Source of the DNA: Longimicrobiales bacterium
GTDB lineage: Bacteria > Gemmatimonadota > Gemmatimonadetes > Longimicrobiales > Gaopeijiaceae
Direction: 5' to 3'
NCBI GenBank assembly: GCA_951828585.1
Contig: OX639991.1
Coordinates: 558,001 to 622,000 of the forward strand
DNA length: 64,000 bases
Part shown: piece after piece, positions 45,997-55,670 of the stretch
Numbering within the stretch: the first letter of the stretch is position 1
Layout: every line of letters starts with the position of its first letter
The notes under the pieces: model-generated
What the model was told of the DNA's origin: nothing
The model's input: the letters and a program-made list of their open reading frames with translations, nothing else
The model's database searches: none
Program-made: the position numbers and the translations under genes

Positions 45997-46017
45997 ATGA
46001 AGGGAGTTGCACGAACG

Positions 46018-47217
46018 ATGAGGAATCGACCACTCCTGGTTTTCGTATTGTTCGGCGCGGCGGCGTGCCAGCCGAATCAAGAGGACGGATCCGGCCTCGC
46101 CACCGCGACCCGCGACAGCGCAGGCATCCAGATCATCGAGAATGCGAAGCCGCATGAGGGATCGCGAGTGTGGCAGGTCGGACCCGAGCCGACCCTTTCG
46201 ATCGGGGACCGGGAAGGCGAAGACGCCTACATGCTCTACCAGGTCTCGGATGCCATGAGGCTCCCCGACGGACGGATTGTGGTTGCGAGCAGTGGAGACA
46301 ACGAAATGCGGGTCTTCGACGCGTTGGGGATACATGTGGCGACCTGGGGCGGTCCCGGTGAGGGGCCGGGAGAGTTCCAGTACCTGGAGGTTGTCGAACC
46401 CTGGCCCGGTGACTCGATCATCGCGTGGTACGGGCCCCGCAATGGTGTACTGGTCTTCGACTCCGAGGGGAATCTCGGCCGCGCCTTCACCCTGGAGCCA
46501 ACCGTCGAGCGTCCGTTTGCATCCGTGCGTGCGATGGCGGTGACCCCGGGCGGCACGATCCTGGCCGGACACCACCCGCATGTCCTCGACCCGGTAGTGG
46601 TCGAAATCCGGGACGCCGAGGGCAGGCTGCGCAGTTCACTCGGAGAGCATCCCGGTGACGAGCGCCACATCACCCCGGATGGACGTCGATCCGATCCGAT
46701 CTACAGCGCGACAGCAGTTCAGGTGCCGTGGGGTGACCTGATCGTTCACAACATGAACAATCGCTACGAGATCAGAGCGTTCGCCGAGGATGGGTCGCTG
46801 GCCCGGATCGTGCGGCGCGATCATGTGGCGCGTCCACCAACCCAGGCAGAGGTCGACGCCTATATCGAGGAACGAGCCTCCTGGTTGCCCGTGGATCTGA
46901 CACCAACCCAGATCGAGGAGTACCAGGCGGAGGTGCGCCAGAGGCTCCAGTCCGTCCCGGTCGCGGAGCACATTACGGCCTTCTCGTCAGTCATCGTCGA
47001 CAGGCTGGACCACCTCTGGGTAGAGGAATTCGAGCCTCCGGGCCAGGCGCGGCCAGGGTCACTTTGGACGATTTTCGACCCCGAGGGGCGGGTGCTCGGG
47101 TTCGTGGAGACGCCGGACAGGCTGGAGATCTTCGAGATCGGCGAGGACTACATCCTCGGGCGTTCGTGGGACGAAATGTACGTGGAATACGTGCAGTTGT
47201 GGGCGTTGGAGCGCTGA
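46018..47217 (+). CDS. P15: six-bladed beta-propeller lipoprotein
   Basis: The start at ATG 46018 follows AAGGGAG and gives a compact signal (MRNRPLLVFVLFGAAAC, lipobox GAAAC). The 399-residue protein has TRDSAGIQIIENAKPHEGSR, MRLPDGRIVVASSGDNEMRV, GGPGEGPGEFQYLEVVEPWP, VEEFEPPG and FDPEGRVLGFVETPDRLEIF. It ends EYVQLWALER. It opens a run of closely related genes (P15 to P18) on one strand. Confidence 0.87.
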   Translation: MRNRPLLVFVLFGAAACQPNQEDGSGLATATRDSAGIQIIENAKPHEGSRVWQVGPEPTLSIGDREGEDAYMLYQVSDAMRLPDGRIVVASSGDNEMRVFDALGIHVATWGGPGEGPGEFQYLEVVEPWPGDSIIAWYGPRNGVLVFDSEGNLGRAFTLEPTVERPFASVRAMAVTPGGTILAGHHPHVLDPVVVEIRDAEGRLRSSLGEHPGDERHITPDGRRSDPIYSATAVQVPWGDLIVHNMNNRYEIRAFAEDGSLARIVRRDHVARPPTQAEVDAYIEERASWLPVDLTPTQIEEYQAEVRQRLQSVPVAEHITAFSSVIVDRLDHLWVEEFEPPGQARPGSLWTIFDPEGRVLGFVETPDRLEIFEIGEDYILGRSWDEMYVEYVQLWALER

Positions 47218-47269
47218 GAGAGCGAGACTGGCTACGGACGGGAGGAGGGAACGCACGATTTGGGCCAGA

Positions 47270-47308
47270 TGTCAATTGCACTTTACATAATGTCAATTAC
47301 GCATTACA
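47270..47308. promoter_or_regulatory. Tandem 18-bp dyads with 21-bp period, site 3
   Basis: TGTCAATTGCACTTTACA (47270-47287), spacer TAA, TGTCAATTACGCATTACA (47291-47308). A weaker third unit (TGTAATGTAGCATTGTGT, 47312-47329) follows after another 3-bp spacer. It lies between P15 and P16, right before the nominal P16 start. Confidence 0.6.
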
Positions 47309-47327
47309 TGTTGTAATGTAGCATTGT

Positions 47328-48602
47328 GTGTTTGGTTCCCTGACATGCGCTGACCAACAGGAGCTCCTCATAAACACCCGTCGGGTACGGCATCCCCTCC
47401 TGTTCCTCCTTGTCGGTCTGGCCACGCCCGGTTGTCAGCCGGACCTGGATGAGCAAGACCCGGACCCGACCGACCTGTCCGTTTCGGTAACCTCCGACAG
47501 TGCCGGGATCCGGATCGTCGAAAACGAACGGCCTCCAACGGGCTCCCGGCTATGGCAGGTGGGATCCCAGCCGTCAGTCTCGATCGGCGAAGTCGAGGGC
47601 GAGGAACCTTACATGCTCAGCGGCATCCGGGATGCCATGAGACTGGCAGACGGGCGCATCGTCATCCCCAACAGTGGTAGCAACGAGGTTAGAGTCTTCG
47701 ACGCTTCCGGAGTCCATCTGGCAAGCTGGGGCCGTTCGGGCGAGGGGCCCGGCGAATTTAACGCCCTGGTGGAAGTCGAGCCCTGGCCGGGGGACTCGAT
47801 CGCCGCCTGGTACGGACCCCGGCGCGGCGTCTCGGTGTTCGACCTCGATGGCAACTTCGCGCGCGAGATCACTCTGGAGAGAGACCCCGACGACCCGAGA
47901 TCACGCTATGTCCGCCCGGGGGCGGTGACGCGTGACGGCTTGATCCTGGCTGGCGTTGATCCGCACAGCGACGTTGAAGTGCCGGTCGAGATACGGGATG
48001 CGGACGGCCGGCTGGCGAGTTCACTGGGCACGCATCCGGGTCAGGTGGTGCTCATCGACGGAAGCGCAACTCCGAGGATTCTGGGTTGGAGAGTCGTCCA
48101 GGAGCCGTGGGGAGATCTGATTGTCCACAGTAGGACGGAGTGGTACGAGATCACCGCGTTCGAGAGGGACGGGACGATCGCGCGGATCGTCCGCCGGGAA
48201 CATGAATCCCGCGCTCCGACGAGGGCGGAAATCGAGGCCTATATCGAGGAACAGGTCTATTATCCGCCGGAGAGCTTGACGAGCGAAATCGAAGAGGAGC
48301 AGGAGCGGGAACGCCAACGATACCGGGACTATCCGGTCGGGGAGCGCATTCCAGCATACGCCTCGATCATCGTCGACAAGCTCGACCACCTCTGGGTCGA
48401 GGAATACGAAGTCCCCGGCTCGCGGCGGCCCGGCGTGCTCTGGACCGTGTTCGATCCCGAGGGACGGGTGCTGGGGTACGTGGAGACTCCAGAGGGGTTG
48501 GTGATCCACGAGATTGGCGAGGACTACATCCTGGGGCACATCTATGATGAACTCCATGTGGAGTATGTGCAGTTGTGGCCGCTGGAGCGTTCGGGAAGCT
48601 GA
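47328..48602 (+). CDS. P16: six-bladed beta-propeller lipoprotein
   Basis: GTG 47328 opens the frame, but no ATG precedes the signal peptide. An AGGAG motif at 47360 stands six bases before an in-frame ATA (47371), which may be a mutated or unusual start. The signal ends LLVGLATPGC. The mature part has TSDSAGIRIVENERPPTGSR, GRSGEGPGEFNALVEVEPWP and HLWVEEYEVPGSRRPGVLWT. The end is GEDYILGHIYDELHVEYVQL. Expression depends on which start works. Confidence 0.8.
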   Translation: MFGSLTCADQQELLINTRRVRHPLLFLLVGLATPGCQPDLDEQDPDPTDLSVSVTSDSAGIRIVENERPPTGSRLWQVGSQPSVSIGEVEGEEPYMLSGIRDAMRLADGRIVIPNSGSNEVRVFDASGVHLASWGRSGEGPGEFNALVEVEPWPGDSIAAWYGPRRGVSVFDLDGNFAREITLERDPDDPRSRYVRPGAVTRDGLILAGVDPHSDVEVPVEIRDADGRLASSLGTHPGQVVLIDGSATPRILGWRVVQEPWGDLIVHSRTEWYEITAFERDGTIARIVRREHESRAPTRAEIEAYIEEQVYYPPESLTSEIEEEQERERQRYRDYPVGERIPAYASIIVDKLDHLWVEEYEVPGSRRPGVLWTVFDPEGRVLGYVETPEGLVIHEIGEDYILGHIYDELHVEYVQLWPLERSGS

Positions 48603-48620
48603 CAACGGGAGGTTGGAGAC

Positions 48621-49883
48621 ATGAAGATTCGCATCCTCGCGGCGGTCGCGGCCATCGCCGCCCTGGGCACGTTCGCCTGCCAGCAGGATCTGGATCAACA
48701 GGAGCCGGCCCAGGGCGCCGACCAGCCGACCTCCGAAATCCGCGACAGCGCAGGCATCCTGATCACCGAAAACGCCCGCCCTGCCGACGGCTCGCGCCTC
48801 GGGTGGCGAATCGGGCCGGAACCGACTGTGGCGATCGGCGCGGTCGAGGGCGAGAAACCGTACCTGTTCGACATGGTCCGCAGCGCCTTCAGGTTGCCGC
48901 ACGGACGCATTGTGGTACCGGACCTTGGCACGGACGAGATGCGGGTCTTCACCGCGACCGGGAACCATCTGATGTCCTGGGGAGGGAAGGGACCGGGTCC
49001 CGGGGAGTTTTCCGGTCTGTTCGGTGCGGGACCGTGGCCGGGGGACTCTATTGTGGCCTGGTATTCGGGCAAGGAAGGGATTTCGTTCTTCGATGCCAAC
49101 GGTCGCCACGCGCGCTCCATTTTCCTGCGGGGTAACCACCCGGAACAGTCGTGGGCGAACCCGAGACCCGTGGCGGTACGCCAGGACGGAACGATCCTCT
49201 CCGTCATGGGGGAGGAGGTCCTCGGCTCGATCATCGTCGACGTTTGGGATGGGGACGGCGGACTTCATGCTTCGCTTGGTCACTATCGGAACAGCGAGAT
49301 GATCACAAGGAGAGATGTCGACGTCGACGGGGAGACCGAGACGGTGGAGCCCGCCTACAGCCGGAAACTGGTGACGACAACCTGGGGAGATCTCATTGTC
49401 GCCACCTGGAACAAGCCTTACGAGATCAGGGCCCTTCATGCCGATGGCACACTCGCACGCATTGTCAGACGTGACCACGTGCCGATGGTGCCGACCGAGG
49501 CTGATCGACACCTCTTTCTGGAAGAGCGCAAGGCCTCCTTTGGCACGTTCGTCAATTCGAGCGGACAGCTGATGTCGGAGGCCCAGGTGGAAGAATGGAT
49601 CATGCCATCGTTGGAATCCTTGCCCCTCGCCGAGCATTTCCCGGCGTTTTCGACGGTCCTGGCCGACGACACGGGCCACCTGTGGGTCCGCGAGTACGAC
49701 CTGCCACAGGAGCAGAACCCGGCGCCGCTATGGACCGTGTTCGATCCGGAGGGCCGCGTGCTGGGATTCGTCGAGACGCCGGCGGGCTTCGACATCCTGC
49801 AGATCGGCGAGGATTTCATCCTGGGGCGGGTCAAGGACGAGTTCGAAGTGGATTATGTGCAGTTGTTGCCGCTGGAGCGGTGA
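48621..49883 (+). CDS. P17: six-bladed beta-propeller lipoprotein
   Basis: The 420-residue protein starts at ATG 48621 behind GGGAGGTTGGAG (MKIRILAAVAAIAALGTFAC; lipobox GTFAC). It carries IRDSAGILITENARPADGSR, FRLPHGRIVVPDLGTDEMRV, GGKGPGPGEFSGLFGAGPWP and HLWVREYDLPQEQNPAPLWT. It begins 18 bases after P16, so it is probably on the same transcript. The blade turn GKGPGPGEF differs from the usual GEGPGEF. Confidence 0.87.
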   Translation: MKIRILAAVAAIAALGTFACQQDLDQQEPAQGADQPTSEIRDSAGILITENARPADGSRLGWRIGPEPTVAIGAVEGEKPYLFDMVRSAFRLPHGRIVVPDLGTDEMRVFTATGNHLMSWGGKGPGPGEFSGLFGAGPWPGDSIVAWYSGKEGISFFDANGRHARSIFLRGNHPEQSWANPRPVAVRQDGTILSVMGEEVLGSIIVDVWDGDGGLHASLGHYRNSEMITRRDVDVDGETETVEPAYSRKLVTTTWGDLIVATWNKPYEIRALHADGTLARIVRRDHVPMVPTEADRHLFLEERKASFGTFVNSSGQLMSEAQVEEWIMPSLESLPLAEHFPAFSTVLADDTGHLWVREYDLPQEQNPAPLWTVFDPEGRVLGFVETPAGFDILQIGEDFILGRVKDEFEVDYVQLLPLER

Positions 49884-49911
49884 CCAACCAGGCAGAGGAG
49901 CCCGACGAAAC

Positions 49912-51114
49912 ATGAAGATCCGCATTCTCACGATCCCGTTACTCTTCGCGCCGCTGGCGTGCGCACCCGATCGCGACGGTACACCCAGCCCCCCCACCGT
50001 CACCCGCGACAGCGCCGGCATCCAAATCGTCGAGAACGCCCGCCCCGCTGACGGATCCCGCCTCCCCTGGAGCATCGGACCCGAGCCCGCGGCCTCCATC
50101 GGAGTCCTCGAAGGCGAAGAACCCTACATGCTCCACCGCGTCATGGATGGCACGAAACTGCTCGACGGGCGGATCATCGTGGCGAACAACGGGACGCACG
50201 AGCTACGGGTGTTCGACGCTGCGGGAACCCACGTGGCTACCTGGGGGGGAAGGGGCGAGGGACCCGGCGAGTTTCTCGAACTGTGGCAGATCGAGCGTTG
50301 GCCGGGCGATTCGATCGCGGCCTGGTACGCGCCCCGCCTGGGAATGTCGGTCTTCGACTCGGACGGGAACTACGGGCGCACCTTCTGGCTGGAGGAGGTC
50401 GGCGAGCGGTTCACCTTCGGCGACCCCGCAGCGGACGGCTCGGTCCTCGCAATCCACAACCCCGAAGGTGGAGATACCCTCATCGTCCAGCTCAGGGATG
50501 CCGAGGGCCGGGTCAGGAGTTCCTTAGGCACGCACCCCGGCGGCGAGCCGTTCCGCAAGACTGTGGACGGGCGCAGGATGCTGTTCTGGACAATCCTGGG
50601 ACGGGATCCGGTTTGGGCGCCGTGGGGCGACCGTGTCGCGATCGGTCACACGGGACGGTACGAGATCAAGGCCTTCCGCGCGGACGGTTCGCTGGAGCGG
50701 ATCGTCAGGCGCGACCTTGTTCGACGGGTGCCGGCGCAGGCCGATATCGTGGCGGACATCGAGAAGGGGTTGCCGATCTACGGACTGTCCGAAGCCGAAG
50801 CCGACGCTGTGCGGGCAGAGGCGATGCCCCGGTACGAGGGGGTGCCGGTGGCCGATTACCTCCCCGCCTTCGCATCGATCATGGTCGATCGGGTGTCCCA
50901 CCTCTGGATCGAGGAATACGAGTCGGTGACGGACGACTTTCCCATGCGTCTCTGGACGGTCTTCGATCCGGAGGGGCGGGTCCTGGGCTTCTTCGAGACG
51001 CCGAAGGACTGGCGCATCTTCGAGGTTGGAGAGGACTACATTCTGGTTGGCGTCCGGGACGAACTGGGGGTGGAGGGGGTGGAGGTTTGGCCTTTGCAGC
51101 GGTCGGGGGAATAG
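49912..51114 (+). CDS. P18: six-bladed beta-propeller lipoprotein
   Basis: The start is ATG 49912 behind GAGGAGCCCG (MKIRILTIPLLFAPLAC). The N-terminal MKIRIL is shared with P17, which suggests a recent duplication. The 400-residue protein has TRDSAGIQIVENARPADGSR, GGRGEGPGEFLELWQIERWP, HLWIEEYESVTDDF and FDPEGRVLGFFETPKDWRIF. It starts 28 bases after P17. Confidence 0.87.
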   Translation: MKIRILTIPLLFAPLACAPDRDGTPSPPTVTRDSAGIQIVENARPADGSRLPWSIGPEPAASIGVLEGEEPYMLHRVMDGTKLLDGRIIVANNGTHELRVFDAAGTHVATWGGRGEGPGEFLELWQIERWPGDSIAAWYAPRLGMSVFDSDGNYGRTFWLEEVGERFTFGDPAADGSVLAIHNPEGGDTLIVQLRDAEGRVRSSLGTHPGGEPFRKTVDGRRMLFWTILGRDPVWAPWGDRVAIGHTGRYEIKAFRADGSLERIVRRDLVRRVPAQADIVADIEKGLPIYGLSEAEADAVRAEAMPRYEGVPVADYLPAFASIMVDRVSHLWIEEYESVTDDFPMRLWTVFDPEGRVLGFFETPKDWRIFEVGEDYILVGVRDELGVEGVEVWPLQRSGE

Positions 51115-51125
51115 ACGGTGGAACC

Positions 51126-51895
51126 ATGTTGACGAAATACCGCCGTGCCGTGGTCGTCTTCACGGGGCTGTCGTGCGCCGCCGTCCGCGCACTTGCTGTA
51201 CGCTGTGGGGCCCGCTTCCGGACGGCGCCTTCCTCGGCTCCTACTCCGACATGATTCCCCTTGCCGGAAGCGGGACGATCCGGGGCTCCGTGATGGCGGC
51301 CATCGTCCCCGATTCCGGCGGCGCACCCGAGTCCGTGGGCGTCTTCAAGGGAGGACAGTACGACCTTCTCGAAGGAAGTGTCGCGGAACCTCAGTTCCAG
51401 TTCCGGTTCAGCATGGCGGTGGGACCGGACGGCTACTTCGTCACGGAGGGCGACTCGTACTCAATCGATGCCTACGACGCCAGCGGGCGCCTGCGGCGAA
51501 TCTTCCGGCTCGCTCGTGGACCTCGCCCGGTCACGGATGAAATCAGGGCGGCGCACGAGGCCCGGCTTCGCGAGCAGACCTCGCCCGAAGACGAGGAGTG
51601 GCTTCAATGGCAGCTTTCCGTCCCCTACCCCTCCCATCTTCCCACCTTCGAGCGGCTACATGCGGACTCGGAGGGGAACGTTTGGGCGGGTCAGGAGAAG
51701 TATGGCGCCGACGCCGGCGTGGCCGACCCCGACATGTCCGAGTTCTTCATCTTCCGAGCCGACGGCCGGCACCTCGGCGTCGTCGAGTTGCCCGCGAATC
51801 TCGAGGTGCTGCAGATCGGGGCGGATTTCATCCTTGCGAAGGTGCGTGACGAACTCGATGTCGACTACGTGCACCTGTATCAAATCGAGAAGTGA
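51126..51895 (+). pseudogene. P19: beta-propeller gene with deletion after the signal peptide
   Basis: ATG 51126 gives a signal-like start (MLTKYRRAVVVFTGLSCAAV). The sequence then jumps, in another frame, into the middle of a propeller (LPDGAFLGSYSDMIPLAGSG, about 51200). The rest is well preserved: AVGPDGYFVTEGDSYSIDAY, FERLHADSEGNVWAGQEKYG, FRADGRHLGVVELPANLEVL and the end VDYVHLYQIEK. About the first 150 residues of the mature protein are gone. It runs convergently into the DUF4143 gene and overlaps it by 16 bases. Confidence 0.75.
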
Positions 51896-53088
51896 GCCAA
51901 TTCCTCCACCATCCCCCCCAGCCCCACAGCCTCCACGCCGCCCGGCAGCGGATAGCGCTCGTCACCACCGTACACCACAAACGCGCGGTCGGGACCGACA
52001 TCATCCAGCGCAACCCGCAGCGACCTGGCAGGCGCGGTGGCGATCCCCCGCTTGATCTCGATCGCCCACACCGCACCACCCGGCAATTCCAGCACGAGAT
52101 CGATCTCGACTCCCGTGGCCGTGCGGTAGAAGCTGGCCCGGGTGCGGTCCGGGGCCGCACGGATGAGCGTTTCGACGACGAAGCCCTCCCAGCTGCTTCC
52201 GGCGACCGGGTGCCCGAGCACATCGTCCCATGTGTCGAGGCCGAGGAGGGCGTGGACGATGCCGCTGTCGCGGATGTACACCTTGGGCGACTTCACCAGC
52301 CGCTTGCGCACGTTCATGTGAACCGGCGGCAAGCGGCGCACCAACAGCAGGTCGACCAGGAGGTCGAGGTAGCGCATGACGGTCTTGCCGTCCACGCCCA
52401 GGCTGCGGGCCAGGACCGACGCTTTCCAGAGTCCGCCTTGCGAGTGCGCCAGCATGGTCCAGAAGCGGCGCAGGGTCTCGGCGGGAATGCGGGGTCCCAG
52501 CATGGGAATGTCCCGCTCCAGATAGGTGCGGATGAAGTTTCGCCGCCAGAGAGCGCTCGCCGCGTCGCCCGGGGCGAGGAAGCTGCGGGGGAATCCGCCG
52601 CGGATCCACAGACGGGTCGGGTTGTCGGGTGCGGCCTCGCGAATGTCCAGGGGATCGAGGGCGAGGTAGCCGATTCGGCCCGCGAGGCTCTCTCCAGATT
52701 GCCGCATGAGGTCCATGGAGGCCGAACCGAGGATGAGGAAATGGCCGGCGGCTTCGCCATCGCGGATGCGGTCGTCGATGATGCCGCGAAGCACCTGGAA
52801 GAGCTCGGGGACACGGTGGATTTCGTCGAGGACGACCAGCCGGTCGCGCACCGAGCCGAGGTAGCCGCGCGCGTCCGAGAGCCGCTCGAGGTGGGCGGGG
52901 TTTTCCAGGTCGAGGTAGAGGCCGGGTGTGGGTGAGCAGGCGGCGGTTCCGGGGGGTGCGTCGGCGATTGCGCGAGCGAGCGTAGTCTTGCCGACCTGCC
53001 GGGGGCCGAGAAGGGCGACGGCCGGGAAGAGGGCGAGGTGGTCCTCCAGGGTGGACCGGAGGATGCGGGGAATGATGGGTGGGTTCAT
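51880..53088 (-). CDS. AAA-type ATPase with DUF4143 domain
   Basis: The start is ATG 53088 (MNPPIIPRILRSTLEDHLAL). The 402-residue protein has Walker A ALLGPRQVGKTTLARAIAD near residue 28, Walker B SVRDRLVVLDEIHRVPELF, and sensor HFLILGSASMDLMRQSGESL. The C-terminal DUF4143 part has WEGFVVETLIRAAP and GVEIDLVLELPGGAVWAIEI followed by K, a PD-(D/E)XK-like nuclease pattern. Such proteins are common, dispersed and of unknown role. A palindrome and a dyad pair lie directly upstream. Confidence 0.88.
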   Translation of the reverse strand: MNPPIIPRILRSTLEDHLALFPAVALLGPRQVGKTTLARAIADAPPGTAACSPTPGLYLDLENPAHLERLSDARGYLGSVRDRLVVLDEIHRVPELFQVLRGIIDDRIRDGEAAGHFLILGSASMDLMRQSGESLAGRIGYLALDPLDIREAAPDNPTRLWIRGGFPRSFLAPGDAASALWRRNFIRTYLERDIPMLGPRIPAETLRRFWTMLAHSQGGLWKASVLARSLGVDGKTVMRYLDLLVDLLLVRRLPPVHMNVRKRLVKSPKVYIRDSGIVHALLGLDTWDDVLGHPVAGSSWEGFVVETLIRAAPDRTRASFYRTATGVEIDLVLELPGGAVWAIEIKRGIATAPARSLRVALDDVGPDRAFVVYGGDERYPLPGGVEAVGLGGMVEELAHFSI

Positions 53089-53114: not shown

Positions 53115-53157
53115 TATTTTGCAAGAATAGTCCACAAACGACAGCACCAATAGTATA

Positions 53158-53196
53158 TTAGAATTAGACATGACATTATGTAAAGTGTGATTTACA
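53158..53196. promoter_or_regulatory. Tandem 18-bp dyads with 21-bp period, site 4
   Basis: TGTAAAGTGTGATTTACA (53179-53196) has perfect six-base arms. It is preceded, after the 3-bp spacer TTA, by the weaker TTAGAATTAGACATGACA (53158-53175), which matches 12 of 18 bases of a site 3 unit. It lies in the AT-rich region between the restriction gene end and the DUF4143 start. Confidence 0.55.
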
Positions 53197-53249
53197 GAAG
53201 GGCTGGGATGGAGGTCAGCGGGCCTCTCGCCCAGGTCGGCGGTCGTCGC

Positions 53250-54146
53250 TCACTCAACCCGGGCTTCCATCTCCGCAAACGCCTCATCCCGGAAAATCGT
53301 GTCGGACAAGAGCGGCGACTCCCGGTCCCAGGTCTCCCGCTCGGTTCGTGACCTCAGGGCCGGGGCGTCGTAGACGAAGCGGCGGTCGTAGATGGCGTAC
53401 AGCCTCTGGAACATCCGATTGTAGTCGAGAACCGATCCGGGGGAGGGATGGCCTGAGTACACGCCGCAGTTGTCCGGGCCACCTCTGGACTTCACCAGCG
53501 TCAGACCGCACGCCTCGTAGCGAGAGGGGTGATCTCGCAGGTCTTCCCGGTCGGACAGGCGCTCCAGGGCGCGCCGGTAGCGGCGAATGGGTTCCGCAAG
53601 CACCCCGGCGTGGAGCACGGCAACATCCTGCACATTGTAGCGACCGTCCTTGAGGCGAAAATGAGCGACCGGAGCAGGGTCATCGGCTTCATTGGCGCGC
53701 AGGACATGCCAGAAGGCGTAGACCAGTGCAGGATACGACATATGGAGATTGGTGCAGTCTCCGGCTGCTTCCTCCATACGGTTGGTCAGGTTGCGGAACG
53801 CGTTGTGGCTGCCCTTCAGGGACACTGCGAGGGCGGGTCCGATTGTCGGAATCGCCACTGTCACATCCAGCCGCTTGGTCTTCAGCCCGCCGAGTATCGT
53901 CCGCTCGCCCGGTTTCGCGGCGCCGGGATCATGGTGCAGGAAGGTTCCGTACCGCGTGCGCTCCACTGTGATCGGCGGCCGAGGCCGAATCCTGTCCGGA
54001 TCGATTCCGCCCTCGATGACCAGCCGGCAAGCCACATACCAATGAAGCGCAAGGATGTGCCGGCTTGTCTGAACACTGGAATCCGGAAAGGCGAACCGGA
54101 CCAGGGCATCACCGAGACTGGTGAGCGCCGGCGCCTCAGGCGGCAC
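53250..54146 (-). CDS. Putative type II restriction endonuclease
   Basis: This 298-residue protein starts 11 bases inside the end of the upstream methyltransferase gene, so the two are translated together. I recognise no named family. A possible PD-(D/E)XK variant core is RLDVTVAIPTIGPALAVSLK, with Asp94 and Lys111 as candidates. Other landmarks are HNAFRNLTNRMEEAAGDCTN and SYPALVYAFWHVLRAN. The restriction role is inferred from gene order and this pattern. The frame is intact. Confidence 0.6.
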   Translation of the reverse strand: MPPEAPALTSLGDALVRFAFPDSSVQTSRHILALHWYVACRLVIEGGIDPDRIRPRPPITVERTRYGTFLHHDPGAAKPGERTILGGLKTKRLDVTVAIPTIGPALAVSLKGSHNAFRNLTNRMEEAAGDCTNLHMSYPALVYAFWHVLRANEADDPAPVAHFRLKDGRYNVQDVAVLHAGVLAEPIRRYRRALERLSDREDLRDHPSRYEACGLTLVKSRGGPDNCGVYSGHPSPGSVLDYNRMFQRLYAIYDRRFVYDAPALRSRTERETWDRESPLLSDTIFRDEAFAEMEARVE

Positions 54147-55596
54147 GGCAATGCCTCCACCGACGAAGCTCCGCGGTCCCGCGACGCAGAATCTCCTTCT
54201 GTTCCTCGGACAGGTCGAGATCGGGCGCCAGGAGCACGCGGCGGGCTTCCGCGGGCTCGATCTTCAGGACACCGCCTCCCAATGCGTGTCCCTCCAGTTC
54301 GCAGGACAGAGTCGTGAGTTCGTTCCGCCAGCTACGGACATACCGCATGACGTTCGCGCCGTTCACGAACTGGACCGCGTGGACCGAGTTCGTGCAGGTC
54401 ACACCGGCCGAGTTCCCGACCAGTCTCGGCCCGCGGCCGGACATGATCGAGAGGAATGCGTGCGGGGTGCGTACGTCCGGCACCGCGAACCATGGCTTCC
54501 GGTTGCGGCACTTGTAGGTCCGGCTCGCGGAGAGTCCCTCCGGGGATGCCAGGTAGGCTTCCACTGACCGGGGCAGCTTCGTCACTCCAGCCAGATCCAG
54601 CAGGAGAACCGGGCGGTCGGCCGCGATCCATGTCTTCACCACGTCCCCGCGGACATCGTCAACGGCCAGATCGCGGTTGGAACGGACACAGACTCGGAGC
54701 ATCTCCCTCGGGATGCCGAGCGCGGCCGCGGCGCTCGGGCGCAGGTGAAAGAAGTCGTTGGCGCCCGTGACATAGCCGATCCCGACCCGTGCCACATTGC
54801 CCAACCTGCGGGCTGCCGCGTGAACCGCGATTTCCCGGTACGCGGATCGGATGGCCGAAGGCACCAGAAAGGCACGCAGCCGGTAATCCCATCGGTCGAG
54901 ATCATCCACCGAAACCGGCTCGAAGACCCAGGAATCGTCACCCACCCCGAGCGAATCGAGTCGAACGAAGTGGATCGCTTCGGAACGTCCGCCGAATCCG
55001 GAAGCACGCAGGAGCCAGCAGTCTTCCGAGAGATCCGGGAACAGCTTTTCGCGAACCGCAACCACTTCGACGCGTGCGAACGACCGCAGGAGATACCGGA
55101 CTACATCCCTGGCGTACACCGCATGTCCGATCTCCGCGGGAATTACGAACGCGAGGCGTCCTCCCGGTACCAGGAGGCGGGAGGCCCCAACGACGAACGG
55201 CGCCCACGAGGAACTCAGCCCGGACAGCCTGACACCTTGGGCCGCGCAGAACTCCAGCGCTCGTCGCCGCCTGCGGCCGCTGAATCGCTGGTAGCGAATG
55301 AAGGGTGGATTGCCGACGACCGCGGTGAACCGGCGATCCGTGCCGGCTGCCCATGCGAAGAAGTCGGCGGTGACGGTCTCGGCTTGCGTACGCCGGGAGG
55401 CCTCGGCGGCAGCCGCGGGATCGATGTCAACGCCAACGGCATCTTTCAGACCCGCGAGGAAGCGCCCGTCACCACACGAAGGATCGAGTACGGGGCCGTC
55501 CGGATCTTGCTCCGTCGCCCAGGAGACCAGCGTCCGCACGACCTCGGGCGGAGTGTAGTAGGAGCCAAGATCCTTGCGGCTCGGGGACTCGCGCAT
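54136..55596 (-). CDS. Type II N6-adenine DNA methyltransferase (Eco57I/TaqI-like)
   Basis: The start at ATG 55596 (MRESPSRKDLGSYYTPPEVV) is chosen because YTPPEVVRTLV is the normal beginning of this family. The 486-residue protein has SAM motif I VLDPSCGDGRFLAGL (about 37-51), DIDP for motif II and the catalytic NPPF (96-99, VVGNPPFIRYQRF). A large C-terminal target-recognition region follows (GYVTGANDFFHLRP, KCRNRKPWF). It should protect the sites cut by the downstream gene product. Confidence 0.9.
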   Translation of the reverse strand: MRESPSRKDLGSYYTPPEVVRTLVSWATEQDPDGPVLDPSCGDGRFLAGLKDAVGVDIDPAAAAEASRRTQAETVTADFFAWAAGTDRRFTAVVGNPPFIRYQRFSGRRRRRALEFCAAQGVRLSGLSSSWAPFVVGASRLLVPGGRLAFVIPAEIGHAVYARDVVRYLLRSFARVEVVAVREKLFPDLSEDCWLLRASGFGGRSEAIHFVRLDSLGVGDDSWVFEPVSVDDLDRWDYRLRAFLVPSAIRSAYREIAVHAAARRLGNVARVGIGYVTGANDFFHLRPSAAAALGIPREMLRVCVRSNRDLAVDDVRGDVVKTWIAADRPVLLLDLAGVTKLPRSVEAYLASPEGLSASRTYKCRNRKPWFAVPDVRTPHAFLSIMSGRGPRLVGNSAGVTCTNSVHAVQFVNGANVMRYVRSWRNELTTLSCELEGHALGGGVLKIEPAEARRVLLAPDLDLSEEQKEILRRGTAELRRWRHCRAA

Positions 55597-55670
55597 GAAG
55601 TGGGGCCCGTGCTGGAGAGGCTGCCGATGCAATCTCCCAAGGTAACACCGGAGCGGTGGGGGAGCCCCCC

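What the first reader, a model, noticed from the sequence alone, without database searches (positions are those of the whole stretch)
53250..55596. Restriction-modification pair with an unrecognised endonuclease
A clear N6-adenine methyltransferase overlaps a 298-residue gene that fits no family I know. Asp94 and Lys111 in RLDVTVAIPTIGPALAVSLK could form a reduced nuclease core. The endonuclease may have a new specificity.
Basis: partly seen in the sequence, partly recalled or inferred. Interest (0 to 1): 0.5.

Follow-up and report, generated by a model that had tools for sequence, protein, structure and literature searches.

The report
XhoI-like restriction enzyme with displaced acid
Two overlapping bacterial genes look like a DNA-protecting methylase and a matching DNA-cutting enzyme; the cutter belongs to an unnamed, widespread family distantly related to the enzyme XhoI, with what looks like one catalytic residue moved, but its target sequence is unknown.

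Summary
Window 54136-55596 (-) encodes a 486-aa N6-adenine methyltransferase of the Eco57I/TaqI group, and 53250-54146 (-) a 298-aa protein overlapping it by 11 nt. The 298-aa protein has no Pfam, NCBIfam or PDB sequence hit, is under purifying selection, and has relatives in Gemmatimonadota, Planctomycetota, Pseudomonadota and Actinomycetota. In 24 of 26 active-site-intact members, an M homologue lies just upstream (once split by an IS), so a Type II restriction-modification pair is the best reading. The usual (D/E)xK acid is serine, but acids follow on the next predicted helix: positions 126 and 130 are acidic in 26 of 26 intact members and in 0 of 5 degenerate congener copies. This recalls the permuted PD...K...E site of CCGG-family enzymes, although the spacing does not fit exactly. 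Profile-profile comparison links the family to XhoI (score 72, against at most 21.3 in 60 shuffled controls). Structure models are low-confidence. Specificity could not be determined. Verdict: a new endonuclease family within a known kind.

The parts
54136..55596 (-). M gene: N6-adenine DNA methyltransferase, Eco57I/TaqI group, 486 aa
   Evidence: Pfam N6_Mtase, Eco57I, M_Eco57I_C above cut-off; PADLOC MTase_II PDLC03267 3e-88; TaqI MTase in PDB 1e-12
55465..55485 (-). SAM-binding motif DPSCGDG of M (residues 38-44)
   Evidence: translation; motif meaning recalled
55300..55311 (-). catalytic motif NPPF of M (residues 96-99)
   Evidence: translation; motif meaning recalled
53250..54146 (-). R gene: predicted Type II restriction endonuclease, 298 aa, GTG start
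   Evidence: family conservation; dN/dS 0.09-0.16
54136..54146 (-). 11-nt overlap of M stop and R start (suggests translational coupling)
   Evidence: coordinates
53748..53876 (-). nuclease core motif K91-x2-D94 ... S109-x-K111 ... N119-x2-N122-R123-x-E125-E126-x3-D130 ... N133
   Evidence: alignments; aligned to XhoI family by hhalign
53865..53867 (-). Asp94 codon, proposed metal ligand
   Evidence: identical in 32 of 32
53814..53822 (-). Ser109-Leu-Lys111 codons (SxK in place of (D/E)xK)
   Evidence: S 31 of 32, K 27 of 32
53769..53774 (-). Glu125-Glu126 codons; E126 is the preferred candidate for the displaced acid
   Evidence: position 126 acidic in 26 of 26 core-intact rows and 0 of 5 degenerate rows; E125 in 23 of 26 and 5 of 5
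53757..53759 (-). Asp130 codon, second candidate acid on the same helix
   Evidence: acidic in 26 of 26 core-intact rows and 0 of 5 degenerate rows
53130..55666 (.). segment absent from congeners G060 and G057, where the flanking AAA/DUF4143 gene and GMC oxidoreductase gene are neighbours, 204 nt (L065) or 19 nt (L066) apart

Best explanation
A horizontally mobile Type II restriction-modification cassette. M methylates an adenine in a short, unknown site and so protects the host. R cuts unmethylated DNA there. R is a PD-(D/E)XK-type nuclease of an unnamed family remotely related to XhoI: D94 and K111 make the core, and an acid from the following helix (E126 most likely; E125 or D130 possible) takes the place of the missing acid before the lysine (S109), in the manner of the permuted PD...K...E site of the CCGG-family enzymes. 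Shown here: gene pair, conservation, linkage, residue pattern, remote homology to XhoI. Inferred: DNA cleavage, metal binding, which acid acts (about 0.5 on its own), and protection by M.
For: M is a clear N6-adenine MTase. An M homologue lies just upstream on the same strand in 24 of 26 family members that keep the active-site residues (window + 25 loci; M match ending at most about 240 nt before R, most overlapping or abutting; one M split by an IS; the misses are L006 with no M in its 10.7 kb and L011 at a contig end). Seven of eight plasmid loci with a full R gene and unsplit M are annotated 'N-6 DNA methylase' followed by 'hypothetical protein' (in one search both are 'hypothetical'). D94 32 of 32, S109 31 of 32, K111 27 of 32; position 126 acidic in 26 of 26 core-intact and 0 of 5 degenerate rows. 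Profile-profile match to XhoI: score 72.0, probability 96.6, against a maximum of 21.3 in 60 column-shuffled controls and 14.6 reversed; the window's own subfamily alone scores 45.2, probability 83.7 (controls at most 24.0). PADLOC Type II endonuclease models hit the window protein and 6 of 9 relatives weakly at E up to 0.04, including the XhoI model PDLC03540 to L014 at 0.0014. The top 20 rows of the first structural comparison and 14 of the top 20 of the second are nucleases I recall as PD-(D/E)XK. Purifying selection. Empty site in two congeners.
Against: No experiment. Both structure models are poor (mean pLDDT 62.9; blocks of residues 81-130 at 29-68) and no structural match exceeds Z 5.6; a non-nuclease (acetyl-CoA carboxylase, Z 5.2) ties with the nucleases in the second comparison; Foldseek alone gives nothing below E 0.47. 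The canonical acid is absent, so catalysis rests on the displaced-acid idea. E126 is 14 residues after K111, outside the quoted x12-13; E125 (x13) fits but is A or G in 3 of 26 core-intact rows and is kept in all 5 degenerate ones. D94-x16-K111 lies outside the quoted x21-53. E81 is also acidic in 22 of 26 intact and 0 of 5 degenerate rows, so it competes. L028, L020 and L030 had no PADLOC hit. No palindrome is avoided in a way specific to the carrier.
Confidence: 0.82

Rival explanations
1. The same R-M system, but with an otherwise built PD-(D/E)XK site: the missing acid is supplied by an upstream residue, E81 above all, rather than by the helix after K111.
For: E81 is acidic in 22 of 26 core-intact rows and is Arg in 5 of 5 degenerate rows; PfoI of the CCGG family takes its acids from upstream positions (PMC6344858, passages read).
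Against: E81 is S or N in 4 core-intact rows, while positions 126 and 130 are acidic in 26 of 26; E45 is E in only 15 of 26.
Confidence: 0.3
2. M acts mainly as an epigenetic or orphan methylase and the 298-aa protein is a non-cleaving partner (DNA-binding or regulatory).
For: Five congener paralogues (L038-L042) have lost core residues but remain open frames of 335-780 residues with no stop inside, so the scaffold can be retained without the core; the canonical acid is missing also in the window protein.
Against: The window copy and 25 others keep D, K, N, N, R and helix acids; the window clade is under purifying selection; 24 of the 26 sit just after M, whereas none of the five degenerate copies has an M upstream (in two of five an M-like gene lies downstream).
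Confidence: 0.12
3. A modification-dependent (Type IV-like) or nicking enzyme rather than an ordinary Type II enzyme.
For: Specificity and substrate are untested.
Against: Tight linkage with an adenine methylase and relation to XhoI favour an ordinary Type II pair.
Confidence: 0.06

Closest known systems
XhoI / PaeR7I family (Pfam PF04555; PADLOC PDLC03540)
   Same: K-x2-D ... xK ... N..NR.EEA.G core motif in the same order; the XhoI homologue L048 also lies next to a Type II MTase; profile-profile score 72, probability 96.6 over 132 columns
   Different: XhoI members have ExK (5 of 5 seen), this family SxK; the window protein does not hit PF04555 and the best of nine relatives only E=0.038, below the cut-off; the A3 alignment to XhoI begins at residue 89, so the N-terminal part is not covered by it
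CCGG-family endonucleases (Cfr10I, NgoMIV, Bse634I, PspGI, EcoRII)
   Same: no acid two before the lysine and an acid on the following helix; K111-x13-E125 fits the quoted K-x12-13-E (PMC4652773, passages read)
   Different: no sequence similarity found; the better conserved E126 is at x14; D94-x16-K111 is outside the quoted x21-53 (BsaWI itself, D145 and K165, has 19); no R-(D/E)R motif in K111-E126
PADLOC REase_II PDLC03558 (identity not given by the tool)
   Same: E=0.005 to the window protein, 7e-5 to L006 and L010, 2e-7 to L043
   Different: only a partial match (residues 124-222 of the window protein)
TaqI / Eco57I methyltransferases (for M)
   Same: TaqI N-terminal domain 1e-12; Eco57I and M_Eco57I_C domains above cut-off
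   Different: separate M protein, not fused to a nuclease as in Eco57I (fusion recalled)

Membership tests
Type II restriction-modification system | adjacent modification methyltransferase | tested here: met
Type II restriction-modification system | partner cleaves unmethylated DNA at the site the MTase modifies | not testable with these tools
   needs biochemistry or long-read methylation data
PD-(D/E)XK nuclease superfamily | conserved Asp and Lys on neighbouring strands of an alpha-beta-beta-beta-alpha-beta core | tested here: inconclusive
   D94 and K111 conserved. First model: H29-44, E59-64, E67-72, E95-99, E103-110, H114-123, E142-151; second: no strand at 95-99, E106-109, H120-137, E142-151. 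Both low-confidence.
PD-(D/E)XK nuclease superfamily | acidic residue two before the lysine | tested here: not met
   Ser109 in the window; S in 31 of 32; permuted variants without it are known
XhoI family PF04555 | match above the Pfam gathering score | tested here: not met
   window protein no hit; best of nine relatives 14.3 bits against 25
XhoI family PF04555 | remote homology over the nuclease core | tested here: met
   hhalign 72.0, probability 96.6; 60 shuffled controls at most 21.3
CCGG-family permuted site | PD-x21-53-K-x12-13-E | tested here: not met
   K111-x13-E125 fits, K111-x14-E126 and D94-x16-K111 do not (formula from PMC4652773)
CCGG-family | R-(D/E)R recognition motif on the helix after the lysine strand | tested here: not met
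   no R-(D/E)R in residues 111-126

The most novel reading that the evidence does not exclude
The family is an evolutionary link between the canonical and the permuted active sites of PD-(D/E)XK restriction enzymes. XhoI carries both the ExK acid and the conserved helix acids (NNR.EEA); this family has lost the first and relies on the second. In some lineages the scaffold then lost catalysis altogether and was kept beside other defence-like genes or inside larger proteins (L168, L172, L169).
Probability: 0.35. Interest if true: 0.6.

Novelty: new variant of a known kind. Interest (0 to 1): 0.42.

Why it matters
It gives a remote relative and testable catalytic residues to a widespread 'hypothetical protein' next to adenine methylases in several phyla. 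If the displaced-acid reading holds, this family beside XhoI would be a natural series for studying how a restriction enzyme's catalytic acid migrates. The specificity may be new and useful.

Tried and rejected
Site avoidance as a clue to specificity: in 0.8 Mb of the host genome CTCGAG is at 0.69 of expectation, but congeners G127, G347 and G309, without a family match, show the same (0.71 pooled), so the signal belongs to the genus, not to the system. Among 43 palindromes with enough counts, the largest carrier-specific deficit is GGCGCC (-2.8, no adenine), not significant after 43 tests.

Viral relatives: none found for the window protein in viral contigs or phage records; a query with the distant member L028 found two viral contigs; five other queries (57 was a XhoI homologue) found none. 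Fold searches by Foldseek: nothing below E 0.47. PDB sequence search: none for the protein, for the profile A3, or for a XhoI homologue. CCGG family as an actual home: not filed there because of spacing and the missing R-(D/E)R motif. E125 as first choice for the displaced acid: dropped in favour of E126.

Papers: searches listed no paper that, by title and start of abstract, describes this family; these are capped lists. Only passages of PMC6344858, PMC4652773 and PMC4081073 were read. REBASE could not be searched, so a putative entry there is likely and not excluded.

Full report
What is there. On the minus strand, an M gene (55596->54136, 486 aa) and a second gene (54146->53250, 298 aa, GTG start preceded by GGAGG) overlap by 11 nt. 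M has N6_Mtase, Eco57I and M_Eco57I_C domains above Pfam cut-offs, PADLOC MTase_II PDLC03267 at 3e-88 and TaqI methyltransferase as nearest solved structure by sequence. The sequence shows DPSCGDG and NPPF (their meaning is recalled). The 298-aa protein has 0 hits in Pfam, NCBIfam and PDB and one weak PADLOC hit, REase_II PDLC03558, E=0.005.

A real, widespread family. The genome-contig scan gave 12 relatives from records titled Gemmatimonadetes/Gemmatimonadota, BD2-11 clade, Pseudomonadales, Gammaproteobacteria, Planctomycetota and relatives, Binatota and Nealsonbacteria (bins, so labels may err). Plasmid records gave 14, in Alpha- and Betaproteobacteria and, more distantly, Actinomycetota; a second query with the Dietzia member found 23 records. 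In 395 genomes of the window's phylum 13 have a match, 9 of them in the window's genus counting itself; three of the 13 (G022, G304, G392) match only in part. Comparison with the four closest relatives gives dN/dS 0.09, 0.14, 0.13 and 0.16.

Linkage with M. I counted the 26 family members (window, L001-L012, L014-L016, L018-L020, L028-L032, L037, L044) that keep K111, N119, N122 and R123. An M homologue lies just upstream on the same strand in 24; the M match ends at most about 240 nt before R, and in most it overlaps or abuts R. One of these (L016) is split by an IS1634 element. The misses are L006 (no M in its 10.7 kb) and L011 (contig end, 162 nt upstream). Left out of this count: the window's own loci L013 and L036, L033-L035 (the same matches as L001, L002 and L004), the truncated or broken copies L017 and L021, the short piece L045, the degenerate copies L038-L042, and L043, where K111 is Arg and an M-like gene lies downstream on the other strand. 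L012 carries a frame break in the R gene. The fetched plasmid loci are 9 of the records listed; the other records were not examined for linkage.

Active site. In a 32-sequence alignment (near-identical, broken and short loci dropped before it) D94 and G103 are identical in 32, S109 in 31, K111 in 27, N119 in 27, N122 in 26, R123 in 27, E125 in 29. Splitting the rows (26 core-intact, 5 degenerate, L043 apart): K91 is kept in 26 of 26 and lost in 5 of 5; position 126 is acidic in 26 of 26 and 0 of 5; position 130 in 26 of 26 and 0 of 5; E81 in 22 of 26 and 0 of 5; E125 in 23 of 26 but 5 of 5; D94 and S109 are kept in both groups. K111, N119, N122 and R123 define the split, so their counts there say nothing new. 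CCGG-family enzymes share a permuted PD...K...D/E site (PMC6344858, passages), quoted as PD-x21-53-K-x12-13-E (PMC4652773, passages). Here K111-x13-E125 fits, while K111-x14-E126 and D94-x16-K111 do not, so the likeness is one of arrangement, not membership.

Relation to XhoI. Five XhoI-family proteins from the phylum read K-x-W-D ... E-x-K ... N-x-F-N-N-R-(A/T)-E-E-A. hhalign of the broad family alignment A3 (12 rows) with them gives score 72.0, probability 96.6 over 132 columns. The window subfamily A1 (15 rows) gives 45.2, probability 83.7, and four distant members alone 48.8. The highest of 60 column-shuffled controls is 21.3, 24.0 and 22.8 respectively; A3 against the reversed XhoI alignment gives 14.6. 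So the two families are remotely homologous over the core. PF04555 itself does not detect the window protein.

Structure. Two AlphaFold runs (12 and 15 rows) gave mean pLDDT 62.9 each and low confidence in the core. Foldseek found nothing significant. VIA-align's best rows are Z 5.2 (NucC, 141 residues, 4.2 A) and Z 5.6 (BbvCI, 145 residues, 4.1 A), within the range that may mean only a common arrangement. All of the top 20 rows of the first comparison (about ten different proteins, several repeated) and 14 of the top 20 of the second (seven proteins) are nucleases whose fold I recall as PD-(D/E)XK; the other six of the second are acetyl-CoA carboxylases and dehydrogenases. This is supportive, not proof.

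Mobility. Six congener loci around the GMC oxidoreductase gene were compared. In two, G060 and G057, the AAA/DUF4143 gene and the GMC gene that flank the pair here are neighbours, with 204 and 19 nt between the aligned ends. In G239 only pieces of the AAA gene remain beside the GMC gene; in G309, G127 and G347 no AAA match is found there. The window pair is thus an insertion of about 2.5 kb relative to G060 and G057 (a loss in those is not excluded). Relatives L001-L004 share only the pair, not the flanks (alignments end at 53247-53252 and 55603-55648).

Specificity. Unknown. Word statistics over 0.8 Mb of the host, 0.4 Mb each of G057 and G068, and 0.36 Mb of three congeners without a family match gave no carrier-specific avoided palindrome.

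Verdict. Type II R-M pair (about 0.82), endonuclease of an unnamed family remotely related to XhoI, probably with a displaced catalytic acid (about 0.5 on its own). Whether REBASE already lists members could not be checked.

Noticed in passing
L172:2902-9316 (-), L168:2534-8969 (-), compared with L177 and L178: A three-gene module: N6-adenine MTase (553 aa), protein with two HATPase domains (777 aa; also PADLOC REase_II PDLC03419 at 1e-14), and a 377-aa protein with a receiver-like start (VDDE; no Pfam hit). The HATPase protein is in 4 of 200 phylum genomes, with both partners adjacent in 4 of 4; in the two from the window's genus a degenerate paralogue of the 298-aa protein lies directly upstream, in the other two none was found.
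   Followed up: partly
L038-L042 (same genes in L172, L170, L171, L169, L168): Five congener paralogues of the endonuclease with degenerate core: K91 lost in 5, K111 to E in 4 (kept in L038), N119 to E or D in 5, N122 to G or E in 5, R123 to G in 4 (kept in L042), position 126 to R or G in 5; open frames of 335-780 residues, no stop inside. Possibly repurposed non-catalytic copies.
   Followed up: partly
L169:1942-4269 (-): A 775-aa open frame holding such a degenerate core between an N-terminal part weakly like DUF7255 (E 0.01) and a C-terminal part weakly like uracil-DNA glycosylase (E 0.046). The start is mechanical, so the fusion is unproven.
   Followed up: partly
L168:7785-8969 (-): The degenerate paralogue here has an extra N-terminal segment of about 90 residues that resembles, from memory only, the head domain of ScoMcrA-type proteins; no Pfam hit.
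   Followed up: no
L170:9814-11145 (+): Just downstream of another degenerate paralogue: a protein with Schlafen AlbA_2 and RecG C-terminal-like HATPase domains.
   Followed up: no
window 46000-51900: Several neighbouring paralogous genes (for example 48621-49883 and 49855-51114, about 420 aa each) that cross-match each other's counterparts in congeners.
   Followed up: no
L016:697-2433; L017: Family copies on plasmids broken by insertion sequences: the Dietzia M gene is split by an IS1634 element, and the pNGR234a copy is in pieces near IS elements.
   Followed up: no
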